This document shows positions 65 to 8,121 of a DNA stretch of 8,172 bases, in pieces; within the stretch, counting starts at the first letter, position 1, and every line of letters begins with the position of its first letter. The stretch comes from Clostridiales bacterium UBA1246. GTDB taxonomy: Bacteria; Bacillota; Clostridia; Oscillospirales; Oscillospiraceae. The stretch lies in NCBI GenBank assembly GCA_002308315.1, contig DBWE01000187.1:407-8578 (forward strand). Direction: 5' to 3'. The notes under the pieces are model-generated. The model was given only the letters and a program-made list of their open reading frames with translations, was not told the DNA's origin and did no database searches. The position numbers and the translations under genes are program-made.

Positions 65-952
65 TTATTCTTCCGCTTTCCCGTCGGGGGAAGCGTCGGA
101 GGCGGGCGTCTCGTCGGCGGAGAGCTTGGCGCCGCAGTTGGGGCAGAAGGCCGCGCCCTGAGTTACGGGGGCGCCGCAGCCGGGGCAGAAAACGCCCAGA
201 GAGGCTCCGCAGGAGGAGCAGAATTTCCCGCCGTGATCGTTGATGCTCCCGCACTTGGGGCATATGACGCCGGAAGGGGCGTCCGTCTGCTCTGCCTCGG
301 GAAGCTCGGGCTGCAGTCCGTGGATCTCCGCGTAAAACGCGGCCTTGATCAGCCCGCAGAACAGGGGCAGGAAGGCGATGAGCAGTATCACGACGATGAA
401 GAGCACGAAGCCGAACACGAAGCCGATTATCGGCAGGAGACTGAGCAGGACGAGAACGAGCACCACGACGAATACCGCAACGCCTATGAGGATATCCGCG
501 CCGAACATCGCGTTTTTGTGTCCGTAGGTCTCCTTCATGGACACTTTGAGAGCGTCGGTGGCGGAGATCTCGGGGCAGGTGATGAGTATGTAAGGCGTGA
601 AGCGGTAAGCGTAGGTTTTGGATATCGCGAAGAAAAAGCCCACTATGGGGATGAGTCCCCATATGAATATCCACAGGGTCATCCAGGCCATTCCTCCGCA
701 CACGTGCAGGAAATTGCTCTTGAAGCCCATGAACAGCTGAGTCGCCTCAGGCTCCTTTCCCAGATAGCCCGCGAGGAACACCATGGTCATTCCGGCTTCG
801 AGCACGAGAGTGATGGGTATGGTGATCAGCGGGATCATGCCGAGGGTGGATACGAGGACTGTCAGCAGTGTGTACAGCAGGGATACTCCCCAAAGACGCA
901 GCGGCTTTTTCATCAGAATACCGCAGGCTTTGCCGTATACGGTCCTTATCAT
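65..952 (-). CDS. DUF975-like integral membrane protein with two C-terminal zinc ribbons
   Basis: This is a 295-residue protein. Hydrophobic stretches at about residues 20-62, 87-110, 150-175 and 176-202 indicate four to six membrane segments. The central YRFTPYILITCPEISATDALKVS region (about 116-138) resembles DUF975 proteins of Bacillota, whose function is unknown. The cytosolic-looking tail carries two zinc-ribbon units, Cys231/234/245/248 and Cys256/259/270/273, each CPxCG or CxxCG paired with a second CxxCG, followed by an acidic Glu/Asp/Ala tail. The start ATG at 952 overlaps the coaX stop as ATGA, which points to translational coupling, and an AGGGAGGT-like site lies upstream inside coaX. 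Its placement behind coaX need not imply a role in CoA synthesis. I see no clear terminator after it. The family call is from remembered pattern; the zinc ribbons and membrane segments are seen directly. Confidence 0.8.
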   Translation of the reverse strand: MIRTVYGKACGILMKKPLRLWGVSLLYTLLTVLVSTLGMIPLITIPITLVLEAGMTMVFLAGYLGKEPEATQLFMGFKSNFLHVCGGMAWMTLWIFIWGLIPIVGFFFAISKTYAYRFTPYILITCPEISATDALKVSMKETYGHKNAMFGADILIGVAVFVVVLVLVLLSLLPIIGFVFGFVLFIVVILLIAFLPLFCGLIKAAFYAEIHGLQPELPEAEQTDAPSGVICPKCGSINDHGGKFCSSCGASLGVFCPGCGAPVTQGAAFCPNCGAKLSADETPASDASPDGKAEE

Positions 953-1734
953 TGATTGCGACCTCCCTTTTTGTTTTTTTCGTATATTATGCGAAGTCCG
1001 TCCAGAAGCAGATTATCGTCGCATACTATCTCTCTTTTGCAGTGCCTGACTATTTTTGAGGCAAGCCCGCCGGTGGCCACCACGGTGGCCCGGCAGCCGA
1101 GCTCCTGCTCGGCGCGTTCAATGAGCCCGTCCAGCATCGCGGCGTTGCCGTAGATGAGACCGCTCTGCATGCTGTCTACCGAATTCGTGCCGATCACGCT
1201 GCGCGGCTCATCGAAGGAGATGCGCGGCAGCTGAGCGGTGCGCGCGGTGAGAGCGTCGAAGGATACCATGACGCCCGGGTATATTATGACCCCGCGGAAG
1301 ATACCGGAAGGATCGATCACGGAGATCGTGGTGGCCGTGCCGAGATCGAGGATGATGAGCGGACAGGGGTATTTCGCCATGGCGGCCACGGCGCCCACGA
1401 CAAGGTCGCTCCCGAGCTCCGCGGGATCTCCCACGCCGATGTTCAGGCCCGTTTTTATGCCGGGGCCGACGATAAGCGGAGCCTTGCCCGAAAGCTGGAT
1501 CATCACTCTGCTCATTATATTTATCAGCGGCGGCACGACGGACGATACTATCGAGCCGTCGATCTGCGCCAGACCTACGCCGTTCAGCTCAAGTATATTC
1601 TTGATAAGCACGGCGTATTCTGCCTCGGTTTTATCGAGGCTTGTGGAAATGCGGGTGAGAAACGCGATCTCACCGTCTCCGCCGAAGCCTCCCAGGACGA
1701 TATTCGTGTTGCCTATGTCGATGGCCAGGATCAT
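949..1734 (-). CDS. coaX: Type III pantothenate kinase
   Basis: The product phosphorylates pantothenate to 4'-phosphopantothenate, the first committed step of coenzyme A synthesis, in the cytosol. At 261 residues it has the usual length of CoaX and the ASKHA fold motifs: the N-terminal phosphate loop DIGNTN (6-11), ELGSD (106-110) around the conserved catalytic Asp region, DLGTATT (130-136), and TGGLA (221-225). CoaX usually has Asp-Arg in the ELGAD-R segment; here Leu111 replaces the Arg, a mild oddity. The ATG at 1734 is preceded by AAGGAGAG at good spacing. Its stop (TGA, 949-951) overlaps the next start, and the ECF transporter gene ends 27 bases upstream, so it is the middle gene of a three-gene leftward operon. 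Type III enzymes are known to be insensitive to CoA feedback and to need a monovalent cation. Confidence 0.95.
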   Translation of the reverse strand: MILAIDIGNTNIVLGGFGGDGEIAFLTRISTSLDKTEAEYAVLIKNILELNGVGLAQIDGSIVSSVVPPLINIMSRVMIQLSGKAPLIVGPGIKTGLNIGVGDPAELGSDLVVGAVAAMAKYPCPLIILDLGTATTISVIDPSGIFRGVIIYPGVMVSFDALTARTAQLPRISFDEPRSVIGTNSVDSMQSGLIYGNAAMLDGLIERAEQELGCRATVVATGGLASKIVRHCKREIVCDDNLLLDGLRIIYEKNKKGGRNQ

Positions 1735-1761: not shown

Positions 1762-2388
1762 TTACTCTTTCTGCCTGCTTCCTATGCGGATCAGCCGGAC
1801 GATAACGGGACTGAGAACGATATTGAAAAGAAGCTCAAAAAGGAAGTTTCCGCCCACAAGGCCGAGTATCATGTATTTTCCGACGCTTTCAAAGCCCGTG
1901 CTCAGACCCCATTCCCTGATGGTGGGCAGGAAGAACACCAGGCAGCCCAGCAGGAAAATGCCCGTGTTTACGACCGGGGCGACGATGGCGGACACGATGA
2001 CGCCGAGCTCAACGCCCCATTTTTCCCTGCCCTTGACTTTGAGGAGGATCTGCGCGTCCACACGGCGCAGAGCCTTGTATACCGCTCCGGCGCAGAGTCC
2101 GGACAGTATGCCCTTGAGCAGAACGACCAGGATCGTGCCGGCAGGGCTGATGACAAGAAACGCAGCGGCGTCGCCGCTGAGCAGGACGACCATGCCGAAC
2201 ACAAAGCCGAGCCATGCCCCGGCGATCAGGCCGTAGAGAGCCGCGCCGACGACGATGGGTATAAGGACCAACGAGATCGAGAAGGGCCCGAAACGGATGA
2301 AGGCGCCGAGGAACTGGAGAAGGACGACTATTACGGTCATCATCGCCAGCCCCGTGATCCTTCGGATGTTGAAACGCTTGTTTTCCAT
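1762..2388 (-). CDS. ECF transporter S component, possibly for pantothenate
   Basis: This is a 208-residue, very hydrophobic protein with about six membrane segments (roughly 11-31, 38-56, 57-80, 83-106, 128-155 and 171-200). Its length and layout match the substrate-binding S subunits of energy-coupling factor vitamin transporters, which capture a vitamin and share an EcfA/EcfA'/EcfT energising module encoded elsewhere. Polar residues inside the membrane spans, such as Asn141 in PVVNTGIF and Asn181/Glu185 in NFLFELLFN, are typical of the family. I chose the ATG at 2388 because AAGGAGG sits 8 bases upstream; an in-frame start at 2511 would add 41 residues reading through that site and through the promoter. 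Being directly upstream of coaX suggests pantothenate (PanT-like) as substrate. That is inference from context, since S components cannot be assigned by sequence feel alone. Confidence 0.85.
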   Translation of the reverse strand: MENKRFNIRRITGLAMMTVIVVLLQFLGAFIRFGPFSISLVLIPIVVGAALYGLIAGAWLGFVFGMVVLLSGDAAAFLVISPAGTILVVLLKGILSGLCAGAVYKALRRVDAQILLKVKGREKWGVELGVIVSAIVAPVVNTGIFLLGCLVFFLPTIREWGLSTGFESVGKYMILGLVGGNFLFELLFNIVLSPVIVRLIRIGSRQKE

Positions 2389-2396
2389 TGTAAATT

Positions 2397-2403
2397 CCTC
2401 CTT
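2397..2403 (-). promoter_or_regulatory. Ribosome binding site that fixes the ECF S component start
   Basis: AAGGAGG on the minus strand, 8 bases before the ATG at 2388, is a near-perfect Shine-Dalgarno sequence. It supports the short 208-residue form over the 249-residue open frame. Confidence 0.9.
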
Positions 2404-2455
2404 GCTGCCGCTCCCCCCTTGCGTGGGATACGACGCATATATGATTACAAAATAT

Positions 2456-2484
2456 ATTATAGACCGACAAAGCGCGAAAGTAAA
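2456..2484 (-). promoter_or_regulatory. Sigma-A type promoter of the ECF-coaX operon
   Basis: On the minus strand TATAAT (2461-2456) is a perfect -10 hexamer. The -35 is TTTACT (2484-2479), four of six matches to TTGACA, with a spacer of 17 bases. Transcription would start near 2449, giving a leader of about 60 nt before the ATG at 2388. It faces away from the plus-strand promoter at 2555-2583. Confidence 0.7.
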
Positions 2485-2509
2485 GGCTTTATATGCGCTC
2501 CGCGGCGGC

Positions 2510-2568
2510 AAGGAATATTCATTAAAAATATTTAAATACGGTTTTATAAACTCATTGACATATTCCTT
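2510..2568. repeat. Spaced 9-bp inverted repeat around the plus-strand promoter
   Basis: AAGGAATAT at 2510-2518 is the exact reverse complement of ATATTCCTT at 2560-2568, centres 50 bp apart. The right arm begins at the last base of the -35 and continues into the -35/-10 spacer of the selenoprotein operon promoter; the left arm lies between the two divergent promoters. It could be a pair of operator half-sites, but 9-bp inverted pairs can arise by chance in an AT-rich stretch of this size. Confidence 0.35.
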
Positions 2569-2800: not shown

Positions 2801-5032
2801 ATGAAAAAAAAGAAGATTTCGGTGGCGGTCGGCGCCGTGCTGGCGCTGGCTGTTATCGCCGGGATCGCGATACCGCTGGCGAGCGCGGCCAACGTATCGG
2901 TGACGTTTCTCAACCCGCTGGGGGAGCTTGAGCCGCTTGAAAACCGGCCGTTGGCTGAGAGACCCGCCGATCTCAAGGGCAAGGAGATAGCCCTTGCGTA
3001 TTACGCCAAGGACCAGAACCCGCACGCGGTGAGGGCGATAGGCGAAATGCTGGAAGAAGAGTACGGCATAAGCGCCAGGCTTTACGACATAGGCAGCTCG
3101 ATCGGCGCAAAGCCGCAGGACTGGTACGACGACATGGCGAAGAGCGACGCCGTGGTACTGGGCGTGGCGGACTGCACTCTCAGCGCATGGTGGGCGGCGT
3201 ATCACGCGAAGATGATCGAAACGCGTGGGACGCCCGTCGTGGTCCTGACGCATTCCGCTTTTGAAAAAGCCCTTGACGCGGGCGCCATGGACAACGGCTT
3301 TACCGGCGTACGCCGCGCGGTGATCGACCCCGGCCTTTACAGCGCGGGATACGTGCTGATGAGCGCGGCCTCGAATACCGATTATCTGCGCGAGACGGCC
3401 TTTGTCACCGCAACCGACACCGTTCCCGTCAGCGTGTACGATCAGGTAAAGAAAGCGCTCACTTCTCCGCTTACCGATGAGGAAAAAGATCCGCCTCAGA
3501 TCACGCTGCGCATGCTCACCGGGTGGGAAGGCAGGGACTTCGATCCCACTGCCGAGACCTTCACCGTTACGAGCACGAGCGAGGCGAAGGCGGCCGCGGA
3601 GTTCAACGACCTGGCCGAGGAGCTGGGCTTCGGCGACGGACTGCCGCTGATTGCCCCCCGCCGGGAGCTGGTGGACAAAATGCTGGAGGCCACGGTGCGC
3701 GACCGCAGCGAGGTGATAGGCAGGATAATGCCGCGCGGCGGTATCATCACCGTTGAAAAGGCGGCGATAAACGCCGTCATGGCAGGCGCGAGACCCGAAT
3801 ATTTCCCCGTGATCCTTGCGGCCATGGAGGCATACGCCGGCTGCTGGGAGGATGGAGACCTGCTTTATCATTCGCTGACTTCCAGCGACAACTACACCAT
3901 GATGGTCATCGTCAGCGGGCCGATAGTACCCGAGCTCGGCATTTCGGGGCAGTGGGGCTATCTCGGCAGCGGCAACGAGGCCAACAACGGCATAGGCCGG
4001 GCGATCAGACTCTGCATACGCAACATAGGACAGACCAGGACCCACGTTACCGACGGCACCGCCCGTTCGGGCCGTCAGAACGACCACGCCCTGACCGTTT
4101 TCGGAGAGGAGCCGAAGCTCCTGCCCGAGGGATGGGAAGGACACAATCAGATGCTCGGCTTTGACAAAAATCAGAATACCGTGACGCTTCACGGCTACTC
4201 CTCCCAGACCATGTACGCAGCCATGGGCGGCGTAAACTCCGCATTCAATCCGCAGAACATCCTCAGAAACATAAGAAATGAAAACAGCGGCTCGGTAGGC
4301 GTCGCCACCATACCGAGGAACGTGGCGGACCTGTCCAGATCTCAGAACGGCATTGAAAACAAGCAGATGCTGCTCGATTCTCTGCTGGACGCCGGCAACG
4401 GCAACCAGAAGCTTTACAGCCGCTGGCTGCTGTGGCCCGTCATAGTCGGCGATCCGGACAGCGCCAGACTGTATAAGGATACGAACGGCATTTACGGCAC
4501 CAAGGCCTTCCGTTCCGTGCTGATAGGCGGAGCGGTGCTGACCGAGACCGCGCACGACCCGGTCAGCCCCGGCACGCCGCAGAATTTCGCCGTGACGCGC
4601 AGCGGTGACGGCGCCGAGCTCACGTGGGAGGCCCCCGTCAGCGACGGCGGCGGAACCGTGACCGGCTATCAGGTGACCTGCACCGGCGGCGCGGCAGGCG
4701 GCGCGGCAAATCCCGAGGGTGAAACGCCCGTGATAAACGTCACGATCGCGGCGCCCGCGGCGGCGGCAGGCTCGAAGATACCCACCGCGCCCGAGGCCTT
4801 CACCGACAGCGGCCGCGCAGCGACGCCCGCCTGGGTGGACGTGCCGTCCGGCAAAATGAGCTATACCTTCAGCGGACTGGATCCCGACGGCGAATATACC
4901 TTCGCCGTGCGCGCGATCAGCGACATCCGCAGCGCCGTCCGCGTGATCGGCGAGGGAACATCCCAGAAGAAAAATACTTACGATCTGGATTACGGCATCA
5001 GCGGCCGCGGCGCGTGGGCGCTGGAAAACTGA
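2801..5032 (+). CDS. Exported UGSC-type protein, cysteine form, with FN3-like domain
   Basis: This 743-residue protein begins with a classical signal peptide: MKKKK, a hydrophobic core at about 6-25, and a likely ASA|A cut near residue 29. Next come FLNPLGELEP (about 36-45) and a UGSC-type domain (about 33-215). The active-site loop GVADCTLSAWW places Cys125 where UGSC-family proteins carry selenocysteine, with Ser128 where a second Cys would be. A linker (LTSPLTDEEK, about 220-230) leads to a second conserved domain from FGDGLPL (277), through NAVMAGA (about 324-330), to IGRAIRLCIRN containing Cys405. Residues about 587-710 look like a fibronectin type III fold (GTPQNFAVT, AELTWEAP, YTFAVRAI) interrupted by an Ala/Gly/Pro-rich insert. 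The C-terminus ends with GRGAWALEN. The next gene, 26 bases downstream, is a paralogue. Function is unknown; an extracellular thiol/selenol redox role is inferred from the family. Confidence 0.85.
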   Translation: MKKKKISVAVGAVLALAVIAGIAIPLASAANVSVTFLNPLGELEPLENRPLAERPADLKGKEIALAYYAKDQNPHAVRAIGEMLEEEYGISARLYDIGSSIGAKPQDWYDDMAKSDAVVLGVADCTLSAWWAAYHAKMIETRGTPVVVLTHSAFEKALDAGAMDNGFTGVRRAVIDPGLYSAGYVLMSAASNTDYLRETAFVTATDTVPVSVYDQVKKALTSPLTDEEKDPPQITLRMLTGWEGRDFDPTAETFTVTSTSEAKAAAEFNDLAEELGFGDGLPLIAPRRELVDKMLEATVRDRSEVIGRIMPRGGIITVEKAAINAVMAGARPEYFPVILAAMEAYAGCWEDGDLLYHSLTSSDNYTMMVIVSGPIVPELGISGQWGYLGSGNEANNGIGRAIRLCIRNIGQTRTHVTDGTARSGRQNDHALTVFGEEPKLLPEGWEGHNQMLGFDKNQNTVTLHGYSSQTMYAAMGGVNSAFNPQNILRNIRNENSGSVGVATIPRNVADLSRSQNGIENKQMLLDSLLDAGNGNQKLYSRWLLWPVIVGDPDSARLYKDTNGIYGTKAFRSVLIGGAVLTETAHDPVSPGTPQNFAVTRSGDGAELTWEAPVSDGGGTVTGYQVTCTGGAAGGAANPEGETPVINVTIAAPAAAAGSKIPTAPEAFTDSGRAATPAWVDVPSGKMSYTFSGLDPDGEYTFAVRAISDIRSAVRVIGEGTSQKKNTYDLDYGISGRGAWALEN

Positions 5033-5044
5033 GTCCGGATCGAC

Positions 5045-5052
5045 AAGGAGGT
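5045..5052 (+). promoter_or_regulatory. Strong ribosome binding site of the selenoprotein gene
   Basis: AAGGAGGT, 6 bases before the ATG at 5059, is an essentially perfect Shine-Dalgarno sequence in the 26-base gap after the first gene. The gap shows no terminator, so the two genes are probably co-transcribed. Confidence 0.9.
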
Positions 5053-5058
5053 CAATAA

Positions 5059-8000
5059 ATGAAGAAAAAAACGATCCTTAGAGCCTCGGGGATCGTTGTG
5101 GCGCTGGCCGTGATTGCAATGCTGGTGATCCAACTGAGGTCATCGGACGGCATGCAGACGTACAGGTTCCTCAACCCCCTCGGCACGGTCGAGCCGCGTC
5201 AGGATACGCCGCTGGCAGACCGTCAGCCCGTGATAGACATACTCAACGGCACGGGCGAGCGCACGCTGCGTCTCGGCGTGGCGTGGTACTACAAGCCCCT
5301 TGACGCCGAGCCGCCTTACGCCATAGCGGAAATGCTCAAGGAAAAATGGGAAGCGGAGCATCCCGGCCTCACCGTCGAGCTCGTGATCCCCGACCCCGAA
5401 GCGGCGGGCCTCGGCTCGGAGCTTCCCGCGGATCCCCAGTATATCCCCGCCGTGGGCCACGCCTGGAACATCAGGGCAGAAGTGGTCTACGATACCTGGA
5501 AGGATAAAGTCGATGCAATGATACTCGGGGTAGGCGATTGAAACTGCTGCGCGTGGTGGAGTTCCATCCATATGAAAAACATCGAATCCCGCGGCATCCC
5601 GGCAGCTTACATGACTACCTCGCTTTTCCATCGCATTCAGAACCAGGGCTTCAGAGCCAACGGCATGACCAACGCACGCCGGGTGATCATGGATCACTCG
5701 CTGATGGCCACGGCGGAAATGTATACCAGCCAGAACAACAGACCCGGCCGTCAGGCAATGGAATATCTCAAGGAAAACGTTCTTAACACTACGGATTATC
5801 CCGACAGAGCGCGTATGGAGTACGCGGGCGTGGCGGATCTGACTGCTCTCGAGCAGGCGGAGATAGCCCTTACCGCGCCTCTTACCGAGGAAGAACGCAA
5901 TCCTCAGCCCCTTACCTACTACGATACAATGGAAGGCTTCGGCAACGATCGCTACATAGAGATCAAGGCGAAAAGCTTTGCGGAAGCCCAGCAGATCTTC
6001 GACAGGATCGCCATGATGGACGCGGGATCCGGCTACGGGCCCGATCTCGAACGCGTCGGCACGAATGACGGCCTGGGATTTTACGGTAACTTCGGAGACG
6101 GCCTGCCTTTGGTGCCTCCTACCGACGAGCTTGTGAAAGAAATGCTTGCCGGCTCCGAGCGCGGGAAACATCCCGACGACGTTATCGGATGGCTCAAATT
6201 CCAGGGCGGCGCGATGACCGTGGAAAAAGTCGCGATCAACGCGGTCATGGCGGGCGCCAAGCCCGAGCACTTCCCCGTGATACTCTCCGCAGTGGAGCTT
6301 CTCTCCAGCGGATGGGACTTCGATAAGATGTGGTATCACGGTCTGGGAACGGGCAGCGACAGCACTCTGCATATCATGGTGAACGGTCCCCTGGGAGCGG
6401 AGCTCGGCATTTCGGGCGGAGAAGGCTCGAACGGCGGCGCCGGCAACCGGGTAAACAACGTGATCGGCAGAGCGATAAGAATGTGCATACGCAACCTCGG
6501 CCATATAAGCACCGAGGTGGACGACCATCAGTACAAGGGCCGCGAGCACGACCACGTCCTGATCTTCTTCCGCGAGGAGGAGGAAAAGCTTCCCGGCTGG
6601 GATCCCGCCAAGTGGGACGGCGATCCGCGCACCAAGGACATGTGGGTGCCGTACCACGTTGAAATGGGCTTCCGTCCCGAGGAAAGCACCATAACGATCT
6701 GGGCGGGCAGCTCCACCGGCAATACCGCCTACGGCGGCGAGCCCTTCTTCTGGACGCAGGCGAGGCTGTCCGGCAACGGCAGCATCATCAGCGGAGGCTC
6801 GGGCTACGGCGGCATGCTGGATACGGGCGCGATAAACTTCGTGGCCATCTCCCCGGGCATGGCTCAGGCAATGTACGATTACAAGGGCGTTCATAACAAG
6901 GACGCGCTCCGCGCCACGGTAACGCCCCCCAGCACGGGAGGCAGCGGCCAGGGCGGACTGTACTATACGCTCAATCCGGTCGTGGCCGGCGGCGACCTGG
7001 CGTCTGTCAGGATCTACGGCAACTACAGCTTCTATAACCGCATGAACCACCAGATCCAGCTCATCAGCGGAGCCACGCTGACCGAGAACGGCAGGGCGGC
7101 GTCCGTCTACAAGAGCGCTCACATAGGCGTGACGGGAAGCGACACCGTCGGCACGAAGGTTGCCGATGCGGACGTGACCTCAATGTTCTTCTCCGCACCC
7201 TCCGTCAACGCCCCGAAGGAGCTGTCGGACGCTTACCCCGTGGGCACCTGGCCTCTGGCCGCGGGCACCTACGATCCCGCGCTGGACGCTTTCACGATCC
7301 AGGAGGGCGCGTACGTGTTCGGCCTGTTTACGAGCAGCTACGGAACGCTGCCGGCGCCGACGGCGATAGCGGGCTACACCAAGATCGCCTCCGCGGAGAA
7401 GATGTCGCCCGGGCAGTGGTGCCTGCTGAAGGGCTCCAGCGGCTTTGACTACGTCATCGTGATGGACGACGAGACCGAGGCGCCGGAAAATCCGCTCGAT
7501 CCCGCTTCCGAGGGGAAAGAGAGCGCGTGGCTGCCTTCGGCTCCGCGCAATGTCAAGGTGAAATTCAGCGAGGGCAGCGTGGCCGGCCGGAAGAACATCA
7601 CCGTCACCTGGGACGCTCCCGAGGACGACGGCAATACGCCGATCATCGCGTACCAGCTGGCGTTCGCCCACGGCGGCGCGATACAGTCCTTCGCCATCAC
7701 CGACGCTCCCGACGGCAAGGTGGATCTGGGAGACGCGGACAGCTGCAACTACGTCGCGCACAGCTACAGCGTTTACAATCATACCGTCGTCCCCGTGATG
7801 GAGGGCTTCGGCATGGGCGTGCAGACCAGCGGCGCGAACAGGATCTATACCGTGCAGGCCGGCACCGACGCCTTCGAGAAGAGAAGCTTCACCTTTGAGA
7901 ACATGCCGGTGGGCTACGAGTGCTTCATAAGAGTACGCGCCGTCAACGGCGTGCGCAGCGCTCTGGAGCTTGACGCGACCGAGTCGCTTGCGACATCTCT

Positions 8001-8121
8001 CGGCGCGAGCCCGACCTTCTTCTGGTTCAACGACGGCATGACCGCCCGCGGAAGCGGACACGGCGCGTGGGGACTCTATAACGGAGGAAAGAGCCTCGTC
8101 ATAGAGGCCGACGCGAAGTAA
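5059..8121 (+). CDS. UGSC-type selenoprotein, membrane-anchored, with FN3-like domain (Sec at UGA 5539-5541)
   Basis: Read through the in-frame TGA, this is one protein of 1020 residues. The N-terminus (MKKKT, hydrophobic 11-26, no obvious signal-peptidase site) looks like a membrane anchor. FLNPLGTVEP follows (about 37-46), then a UGSC-type domain whose loop reads GVGD-U161-NCCAWW, with Cys163 and Cys164 beside the selenocysteine. The linker LTAPLTEEER (about 272-281) and second domain FGDGLPL (345), NAVMAGA, IGRAIRMCIRN (Cys476) match the upstream paralogue. Residues about 680-820 have no counterpart there. About 825-975 look like fibronectin type III (APRNVKV, ITVTWDAPEDDG, CFIRVRAVNG), and the tail has GHGAWGLYN. 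Both halves align with the paralogue across the TGA, and UGA is a normal stop for the neighbouring genes, so a changed genetic code is not the explanation. A split annotation (5059-5541 plus 5572-8121) would be wrong if Sec insertion occurs. Substrate and partners are unknown. Confidence 0.88.
5539..5541 (+). other. UGA selenocysteine codon (Sec161)
   Basis: The TGA follows GTA GGC GAT and precedes AAC TGC TGC GCG TGG TGG. Its codon lines up with the Cys125 TGC of the upstream paralogue (GVADC versus GVGDU, then AWW in both). The frame stays open for 859 further codons. Confidence 0.88.
5554..5570 (+). promoter_or_regulatory. Bacterial SECIS-like hairpin
   Basis: Pairs 5554-5556 with 5568-5570 (U-A, G-C, G-C) and 5557-5559 with 5564-5566 (U-A, G-C, G-C) leave U5567 bulged and an AGUU loop at 5560-5563. 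The loop starts 18 nt after the UGA and has a G in its first two bases. Both fit the usual description of bacterial SECIS elements, which recruit SelB with Sec-tRNA. The stem is short, and the bulged U lies on the 3' side rather than the 5' side as in E. coli fdhF. Confidence 0.7.

What the first reader, a model, noticed from the sequence alone, without database searches (positions are those of the whole stretch)
5059..8121. Overlooked selenoprotein: two apparent ORFs are one gene with an in-frame UGA
The frame from 5059 stops at TGA 5539-5541 and continues unbroken in the same frame to 8121. The residues before and after the TGA align with a single uninterrupted paralogue just upstream, and the TGA replaces that paralogue's Cys125. 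The loop GVGD-U-NCC matches the known UGSC pattern of a Sec after a Gly-Asp turn with a Cys at U+3. Automated annotation would create a truncated 160-residue protein and a second protein without a ribosome binding site of normal quality or an export signal.
Basis: partly seen in the sequence, partly recalled or inferred. Interest (0 to 1): 0.93.

Follow-up and report, generated by a model that had tools for sequence, protein, structure and literature searches.

The report
Surface selenoprotein hidden by UGA codon
A gene in a bacterium related to one from yak rumen looks cut in two by a stop codon but is likely one intact gene, its stop codon predicted to be read as the rare amino acid selenocysteine to make a protein that would be carried outside the cell.

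Summary
The frame 5059-8121 has a single internal stop, TGA 5539-5541, and aligns across it with the intact paralogue at 2801-5032, where the TGA faces Cys125. All eight relatives found in named genomes also carry TGA there (9 of 9 loci with the window). The genome has selA, selD and selB; its tRNA-Sec gene is seen only as two halves, at the ends of the selA and selB contigs. The 12 codons after the UGA are the most synonymously constrained stretch of the gene (0.88 against 0.51); the Cys paralogue shows no such constraint (0.42 against 0.48). A hairpin there fits the published bacterial SECIS model, except that the window's own folding energy is marginal. In 6 of 9 loci selB lies directly upstream of the Cys/Sec gene pair. 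The protein belongs to Pfam's UGSC family, long known to hold selenoproteins. New here are the predicted export (lipoprotein-like and S-layer forms in relatives), the paired Cys paralogue, the U-N-C-C motif and, in relatives, the placement in the selenocysteine operon. Function is inferred: a surface Sec/Cys reductase distantly similar to PrdB. Selenoprotein call about 0.97; reaction mechanism about 0.3.

The parts
2801..5032 (+). Cys-containing UGSC paralogue (743 aa), intact gene upstream
   Evidence: Pfam UGSC E 4.3e-15 and fn3 E 1e-9; signal-like hydrophobic N terminus
3173..3175 (+). TGC, Cys125 of the paralogue, facing the UGA of the second gene
5045..5051 (+). Shine-Dalgarno-like AAGGAGG of the selenoprotein gene
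   Evidence: sequence
5059..8121 (+). candidate selenoprotein gene, 1,020 codons with UGA read through
5059..5148 (+). N-terminal basic plus hydrophobic export signal or membrane anchor (inferred)
   Evidence: max 16-residue hydropathy 2.86 against 1.12 for the best stretch between residues 60 and about 700; AF2 helix 2-27
5155..5928 (+). UGSC domain, approximate limits, alternating strands and helices; the Pfam match itself covers residues 144-217
5539..5541 (+). in-frame TGA, predicted Sec161
   Evidence: TGA in 9 of 9 loci
5553..5571 (+). SECIS-like hairpin: 7-bp stem with one bulge, apical loop AGUU starting 18 nt after the UGA
   Evidence: model limits from PMC13188914 passages
5542..5577 (+). 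12 codons with the highest synonymous conservation of the gene
   Evidence: control in the paralogue
5572..5574 (+). ATG at which the listed 849-aa protein starts; not conserved
5953..7107 (+). second conserved domain (approximate limits) without a Pfam match at E below 0.1, shared with the paralogue and with the approximately 580-aa family members (motif GDGLPLVPPT...VEKVAINAVMAGAKPE)
7540..7950 (+). fibronectin type III-like domain (17.4 bits, below Pfam's cut-off of 25 in the window protein)

Best explanation
The two ORFs at 5059-5541 and 5572-8121 are likely one selenoprotein gene, whose in-frame UGA, kept in all nine loci examined, is predicted to be read as selenocysteine by the cell's own SelA/SelB/SelD/tRNA-Sec machinery with help from a hairpin just after it. 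The product is a UGSC-family protein with an N-terminal export signal or anchor (inferred), an alpha/beta UGSC domain with the motif D-U-N-C-C at the start of a helix (predicted structure), a second conserved domain of unknown fold, and a fibronectin type III-like domain; some relatives carry a lipobox-like signal or S-layer anchors. It is likely made together with the Cys-containing paralogue encoded just upstream. The likely chemistry (inferred, untested) is that of the distantly similar PrdB and GrdB selenoproteins: the selenolate attacks a substrate outside the cell and a neighbouring Cys (C163 or C164) resolves it to a selenenylsulfide, which thiols then reduce. Low selenium would leave only a 160-residue fragment and the Cys paralogue (inferred). 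The confidence given is for the selenoprotein reading; for the reaction it is about 0.3.
For: TGA at the same codon in 9 of 9 loci, the 8 others 51-95% identical in their best segment. Of 120 listed database homologues, the 25 closest all begin at an internal Met after the site, as expected if gene callers cut at the UGA. A Cys version with CxxC exists (P0027, GVADCNVCTWW). Synonymous identity over the 12 codons after the UGA is 0.88 against 0.51 for the gene, first of 848 windows; the same stretch in the Cys paralogue is 0.42 against 0.48, with 487 of 671 windows as high. The seven upper pairs of the hairpin are kept in all 9. selD 404 bits, selA 502 bits, selB in pieces around a run of N, selC halves identical to the congener's over 27 and 26 nt at the ends of the selA and selB contigs. 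Among 40 relatives, the 5 with this protein all lie within the 10 with selA, p 0.0004 ignoring kinship. selB directly upstream of the Cys/Sec pair in 6 of 9 loci. Signal-like hydrophobic N terminus in 9 of 9; SLH domains in L075. PrdB of a relative hits the UGSC model around its own Sec, E 2.3e-5, though at 24 bits against a cut-off of 125.
Against: No protein-level evidence. The window's own hairpin folds at -7.3 kcal/mol over 47 nt, just short of the published -7.5 limit, and 126 of 200 shuffles fold at least as well; no base pair shows a two-sided change. Nothing like a SECIS family among the Rfam matches in 5500-5640. The genome is 67% complete and its selC is broken across contigs, so an intact tRNA-Sec was not seen in this assembly. 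Only 5 of the 55 listed homologues that span the site have Cys there; 49 have Ser, Asn, Asp, Glu, Ala or Thr and 1 a gap, so a redox residue is not universal in the wider family. In the window's own contig the pair is not next to selB. The PrdB link is weak by profile comparison (probability 13%, E 0.002), and the review passages read note that even the PrdB/GrdB mechanism is hypothetical. The reaction is inference.
Confidence: 0.93

Rival explanations
1. Two separate genes: a 160-residue secreted protein and an 849-residue protein started at ATG 5572.
For: ATG 5572 has GGAG ten bases upstream, and databases list such proteins lacking the N terminus.
Against: The ATG is present in 2 of 9 loci only; the 25 closest listed proteins start to match at differing query residues (172, 175, 185, 189, 203, 211 and others); the split falls between a strand and the next helix of a predicted alpha/beta domain; the frame is open on both sides of the one TGA in 9 of 9 loci.
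Confidence: 0.03
2. A decayed gene: the TGA is a nonsense mutation or sequencing error in a redundant paralogue.
For: An intact paralogue is next door.
Against: The same TGA in 9 loci, down to 51% protein identity, with no other internal stop; synonymous constraint exactly after it.
Confidence: 0.01
3. UGA read as another amino acid (Trp or Gly by a changed code), or plain low-level stop readthrough.
For: A frame open under a changed code would look the same locally.
Against: UGA is used as an ordinary stop by the window's paralogue (5030-5032) and by the Sec genes of L077 and L079; all 5 whole genomes found with this protein have selA; the aligned residue in the paralogue is Cys.
Confidence: 0.02
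4. A selenoprotein, but its role is selenium or redox sensing (a conditional switch between full-length and truncated products) rather than catalysis.
For: In 6 of 9 loci the gene pair follows selB, and in L078 a LysR regulator of the selenium-metabolism type lies nearby; a Cys paralogue is next to it in all 9 loci.
Against: The U-x-C-C motif and a two-domain body shared with approximately 580-residue proteins suggest an enzyme; no switch element was looked for beyond the hairpin.
Confidence: 0.12

Closest known systems
UGSC family (Pfam PF24696; NCBIfam NF041046 'UGSC family (seleno)protein'; GOS UGSC-containing selenoproteins, PMC2398784)
   Same: Sec after a G-x-D turn, UxxC spacing; Pfam match above gathering score (35.9 against 25); the GOS paper already reports UGSC fused to an unknown domain (passages).
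   Different: Motif UNCC, not UGSC; below the NCBIfam cut-off (41.5 against 125); predicted export, fn3-like domain, SLH or lipobox-like versions in relatives; paired with a Cys paralogue, in relatives next to selB. The GOS paper suggests a thioredoxin-like fold; the predicted structure here alternates strand and helix like a Rossmann or flavodoxin fold.
D-proline reductase PrdB / glycine reductase protein B (TIGR04483, PF07355)
   Same: U-x-x-C motif in a similar setting; the relative's Sec-PrdB hits the UGSC model at its Sec (E 2.3e-5, below the curated cut-off) and aligns U to U and C to C.
   Different: No GRDB match in any of the 5 genomes with this protein. They are multi-subunit enzymes with a proposed pyruvoyl group (PMC10298544 passages); the window protein has a signal-like N terminus and further domains.
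Cys-containing UGSC homologues (paralogue 2801-5032; P0026, P0027, P0035, P0036, P0049)
   Same: Cys at the Sec position; the second conserved domain in those aligned (paralogue, P0026, P0027); fn3 in the paralogue, P0027 and P0036.
   Different: The paralogue and 4 of these 5 read CTLS or CALS with no second Cys; only P0027 keeps a CxxC (CNVC).

Membership tests
UGSC family (Pfam PF24696) | Pfam gathering score reached | tested here: met
   35.9 bits against 25; the 7 of 8 other Sec proteins that were scanned all reach it (L076 not scanned)
UGSC family (Pfam PF24696) | Sec or Cys in a UxxC motif after a G-x-D turn | tested here: met
   GVGD-U-N-C-C in 9 of 9 loci
UGSC_fam equivalog (NCBIfam NF041046) | curated cut-off 125 bits | tested here: not met
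   41.5 bits
UGSC_fam equivalog (NCBIfam NF041046) | literal U-G-S-C motif | tested here: not met
   U-N-C-C
Bacterial selenoprotein gene | in-frame UGA conserved among relatives and paired with Cys homologues | tested here: met
Bacterial selenoprotein gene | selA, selB and selD in the genome | tested here: met
   selA and selD over cut-off; selB in pieces around a run of N, each below the cut-off
Bacterial selenoprotein gene | intact tRNA-Sec in the genome | tested here: inconclusive
   none over cut-off; two contig-end halves identical to the congener's; intact in 4 relatives with the protein
Bacterial selenoprotein gene | Sec in the protein | not testable with these tools
   needs mass spectrometry or 75Se labelling
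bSECIS structural model (PMC13188914, passages) | apical loop 3-9 nt, upper stem 4-16 bp, G in first two loop positions, 16-37 nt from the UGA | tested here: met
   loop AGUU, 7-bp stem with one bulge, 18 nt
bSECIS structural model (PMC13188914, passages) | MFE at or below -7.5 kcal/mol | tested here: inconclusive
   whole 48-nt folds: window and L074 -7.3, the other 7 loci -11.3 to -19.5; window over 65 nt -14.8
PrdB/GrdB selenoprotein B superfamily | match to TIGR04483 or PF07355 | tested here: not met
   neither among the families matched by the window protein at E up to 1 (only the related NF040794 at E 0.096)
PrdB/GrdB selenoprotein B superfamily | same fold around the Sec | tested here: inconclusive

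The most novel reading that the evidence does not exclude
A cell-surface selenoenzyme system: an exported Sec/Cys protein pair, built on a PrdB-like selenium site, whose genes are part of the selenocysteine operon itself (selC-selB-Cys gene-Sec gene-selA), so that this lineage keeps the whole selenocysteine code chiefly for one reaction carried out outside the cell.
Probability: 0.35. Interest if true: 0.82.

Novelty: new variant of a known kind. Interest (0 to 1): 0.6.

Why it matters
UGSC selenoproteins are among the most abundant selenoproteins of the GOS water metagenomes, yet the literature passages read here give them no function. This branch gives three handles: a likely exported protein that could be labelled or captured from whole cells, a co-encoded Cys partner, and linkage to selB and selA in relatives that points to a main client of the selenocysteine machinery. 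It also shows an annotation fault: the 25 closest database entries all lack the first 171 or more residues, and with them the predicted Sec and the N-terminal part of its domain.

Tried and rejected
Other selenoproteins in the five genomes that carry this protein: no GRDB (PF07355) match in the 5 (7 genomes searched, 1 match, in G006); molybdopterin oxidoreductases (PF00384) in 5 of 5 but with no in-frame stop in any of the 17 listed matches. Only these two families were tested, so 'sole selenoprotein' is not claimed.

Fold comparison: the 50 rows listed for the full model by Foldseek are nearly all fibronectin or related receptor matches; the two-domain model had no match at E 0.001 or better. 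The second look gave middling Z (best 7.9 and 8.2) to many Rossmann-like proteins, which may show only a common alpha/beta arrangement. PrdB, GrdB and thioredoxin were not in the listed rows, which excludes nothing. The second conserved domain (residues about 299-683) was barely tested. Sequence search of solved structures gave fn3 proteins for the full alignment and nothing of note for the two domains (best E 0.66).

Wider survey: the two-domain profile matched 4 of 394 genomes of the order at E 1e-8 or better, and only the window's own match has a TGA. The 394 were drawn evenly from a larger group; G001, G003, G007 and G012 are not among the matches, so evidently were not drawn. What the other 3 genomes have at the site was not checked.

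Rfam: no match at gathering score in the window; four sub-threshold matches near the UGA, none a SECIS family. Covariation gave no support because the stem hardly varies. Near-duplicates L074 and L076 were dropped before the synonymous count (7 sequences kept) and L076 before the control (6 kept). Of 13 of 40 genomes over the tRNA-Sec cut-off, 4 (47.2-50.4 bits) lack selA and were taken as ordinary tRNAs, not checked singly. The protein search scored 7,995 candidates of 0.55-1.75 times the query length and listed 120 of 144 hits, so short Cys forms or cut N-terminal pieces could not appear.

Full report
What is there. The frame from ATG 5059 runs to TGA 5539-5541 and then on, unbroken, to TAA 8119-8121. 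Read through, it gives 1,020 residues that align with the intact neighbour at 2801-5032 over 690 columns at 33% identity, E 3e-86, with the TGA opposite Cys125. Both match Pfam UGSC above its cut-off (35.9 and 56.7 bits against 25). Both fall below the NCBIfam 'UGSC family (seleno)protein' cut-off of 125 (41.5 and 31.1).

Is it real. A scan of one genome per species found 8 loci encoding a relative, and all 8 have TGA at that codon. In 9 of 9 loci the sequence reads GAY TGA AAC TGC TGY. The records are titled as Oscillospiraceae, Ruminococcaceae, Clostridiales or Firmicutes MAGs, the closest (L074, 95%) from yak rumen. Of the 120 homologues listed from the large protein database, 65 do not cover the site. 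These include all of the 25 closest, which start at assorted internal Met codons after it. Of the 55 that cover it, 5 have Cys, 19 Ser, 12 Asn, 10 Asp, 3 Glu, 3 Ala, 2 Thr and 1 a gap. So the position is a redox residue only in this branch and a few others. That is a point against a simple 'Sec replaces an invariant catalytic Cys', though not against Sec itself.

The decoding machinery. The genome (1.86 Mb, 222 contigs, 67% complete) has selD at 404 bits, selA at 502 bits, and selB on contig C139, broken by a run of N so that its two main pieces (120 and 127 bits) stay under the cut-off. No tRNA-Sec reaches the Rfam cut-off. The reason is visible. The contig that carries selA ends, about 100 bases past the selA match, with 27 bases identical to the 5' end of the congener's tRNA-Sec, and the contig that carries selB begins with 26 bases identical to its 3' end. 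The assembly most likely broke inside selC. ARAGORN finds tRNA-Sec(tca) in the four other genomes with the protein. Of 40 relatives, 10 have selA; 9 of these have a tRNA-Sec of 53.8 bits or more, the tenth being the window's own. All 5 genomes with this protein are among the 10 (hypergeometric p 0.0004, ignoring that the genomes are related).

The SECIS. The 12 codons after the UGA have synonymous identity 0.88, against 0.51 for the gene, the highest of 848 windows (7 sequences, 2 near-duplicates dropped). The same 12 codons of the Cys paralogue give 0.42 against 0.48, with 487 of 671 windows as high (6 sequences). This control speaks against an explanation by the protein position or by general codon bias. 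The hairpin has a 7-bp stem with one bulge and the loop AGUU, 18 nt after the UGA. It meets the loop, stem, G-position and spacing rules of the published model (PMC13188914, passages read). The 48-nt fold is worth -7.3 kcal/mol in the window and in L074, just outside the -7.5 rule, and -11.3 to -19.5 in the other 7, where further pairs below the stem add to it. By itself the window's hairpin is no stronger than shuffles (126 of 200 as good), and no pair shows a two-sided change. The constraint, not the energy, is the evidence.

Neighbourhood. In all nine loci the Cys gene precedes the Sec gene (in L074 it is cut by the contig end). In 6 of 9 (L075, L076, L077, L078, L080, L081) selB lies directly upstream of the pair. 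L078 reads selC-selB-Cys gene-Sec gene-selA-cysteine desulfurase-LysR regulator of the selenium-metabolism type, with selD opposite. L075 and L077 hold selC, selB and selA around the pair, and L075 also selD. In the window's own contig the upstream genes are others (type III pantothenate kinase and a membrane protein), so here the pair is not joined to selB on that side. L074's contig starts inside the Cys gene, and L079 shows no selB in the 3.2 kb held upstream.

How it may work. PrdB of a relative (L082), itself with an in-frame TGA, hits the UGSC model over 45 residues around its Sec at E 2.3e-5, 24 bits, well under that model's cut-off, and aligns U to U and C to C with the two-domain profile, though weakly (probability 13%). 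In glycine and proline reductases the selenolate is proposed to attack carbon and a thiol to free the selenium; the review passages read call parts of this hypothetical (PMC10298544). I propose the same kind of chemistry outside the cell, with C163 or C164 as the resolving thiol and the Cys paralogue as partner. Shown: the reading frame, the conservation, the machinery genes, the pairing and, in relatives, the linkage to sel genes. Predicted: Sec insertion, export, fold. Inferred: the reaction and the partner role.

Novelty. UGSC selenoproteins are known from the GOS marine survey, including a fusion to an unknown domain (PMC2398784, passages). Searches for UGSC with selenoprotein (8 papers listed, passages read in 3), UGSC alone, and exported or surface bacterial selenoproteins (15 of 27 listed in the latter) listed nothing that describes this exported, paired, operon-linked form; only titles, abstract starts and passages were seen, and subscription papers are missing. 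I call it a new variant of a known kind.

Noticed in passing
G000 contigs C149:1-27 and C139:1-26: The genome's tRNA-Sec gene appears cut by an assembly break, its 5' end at the selA contig's end and its 3' end at the selB contig's start; the tRNA-Sec search here called this genome negative.
   Followed up: yes
L082:1225-1947 (-), genome G006: A D-proline reductase PrdB gene with its own in-frame TGA (DAVLMTAG-U-GTCHRS) in a genome of the same family, which had no match to the window protein.
   Followed up: partly
P0044-P0120: Of the listed relatives that span the site, many have Ser, Asn or Ala there (GDSGMGGW, GDNGMGGW; about 580 aa) and others Asp (EDNVGAWW; about 690-930 aa); the wider family may do chemistry without a redox residue there.
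   Followed up: no
window 5953-7107; also in the paralogue 2801-5032: A well conserved domain (GDGLPLVPPT...VEKVAINAVMAGAKPE...NNVIGRAIR) without a Pfam match in the two window proteins, present in the 11 proteins aligned.
   Followed up: partly
window 949-1734 (-) and 1762-2511 (-): Type III pantothenate kinase gene next to a predicted membrane protein that looks by eye like an ECF transporter S component (no NCBIfam match); unrelated to the finding.
   Followed up: partly
L079:1-3233: Besides the window's own contig, the one locus with kilobases of upstream flank and no selB next to the pair; where its sel genes lie was not checked.
   Followed up: no
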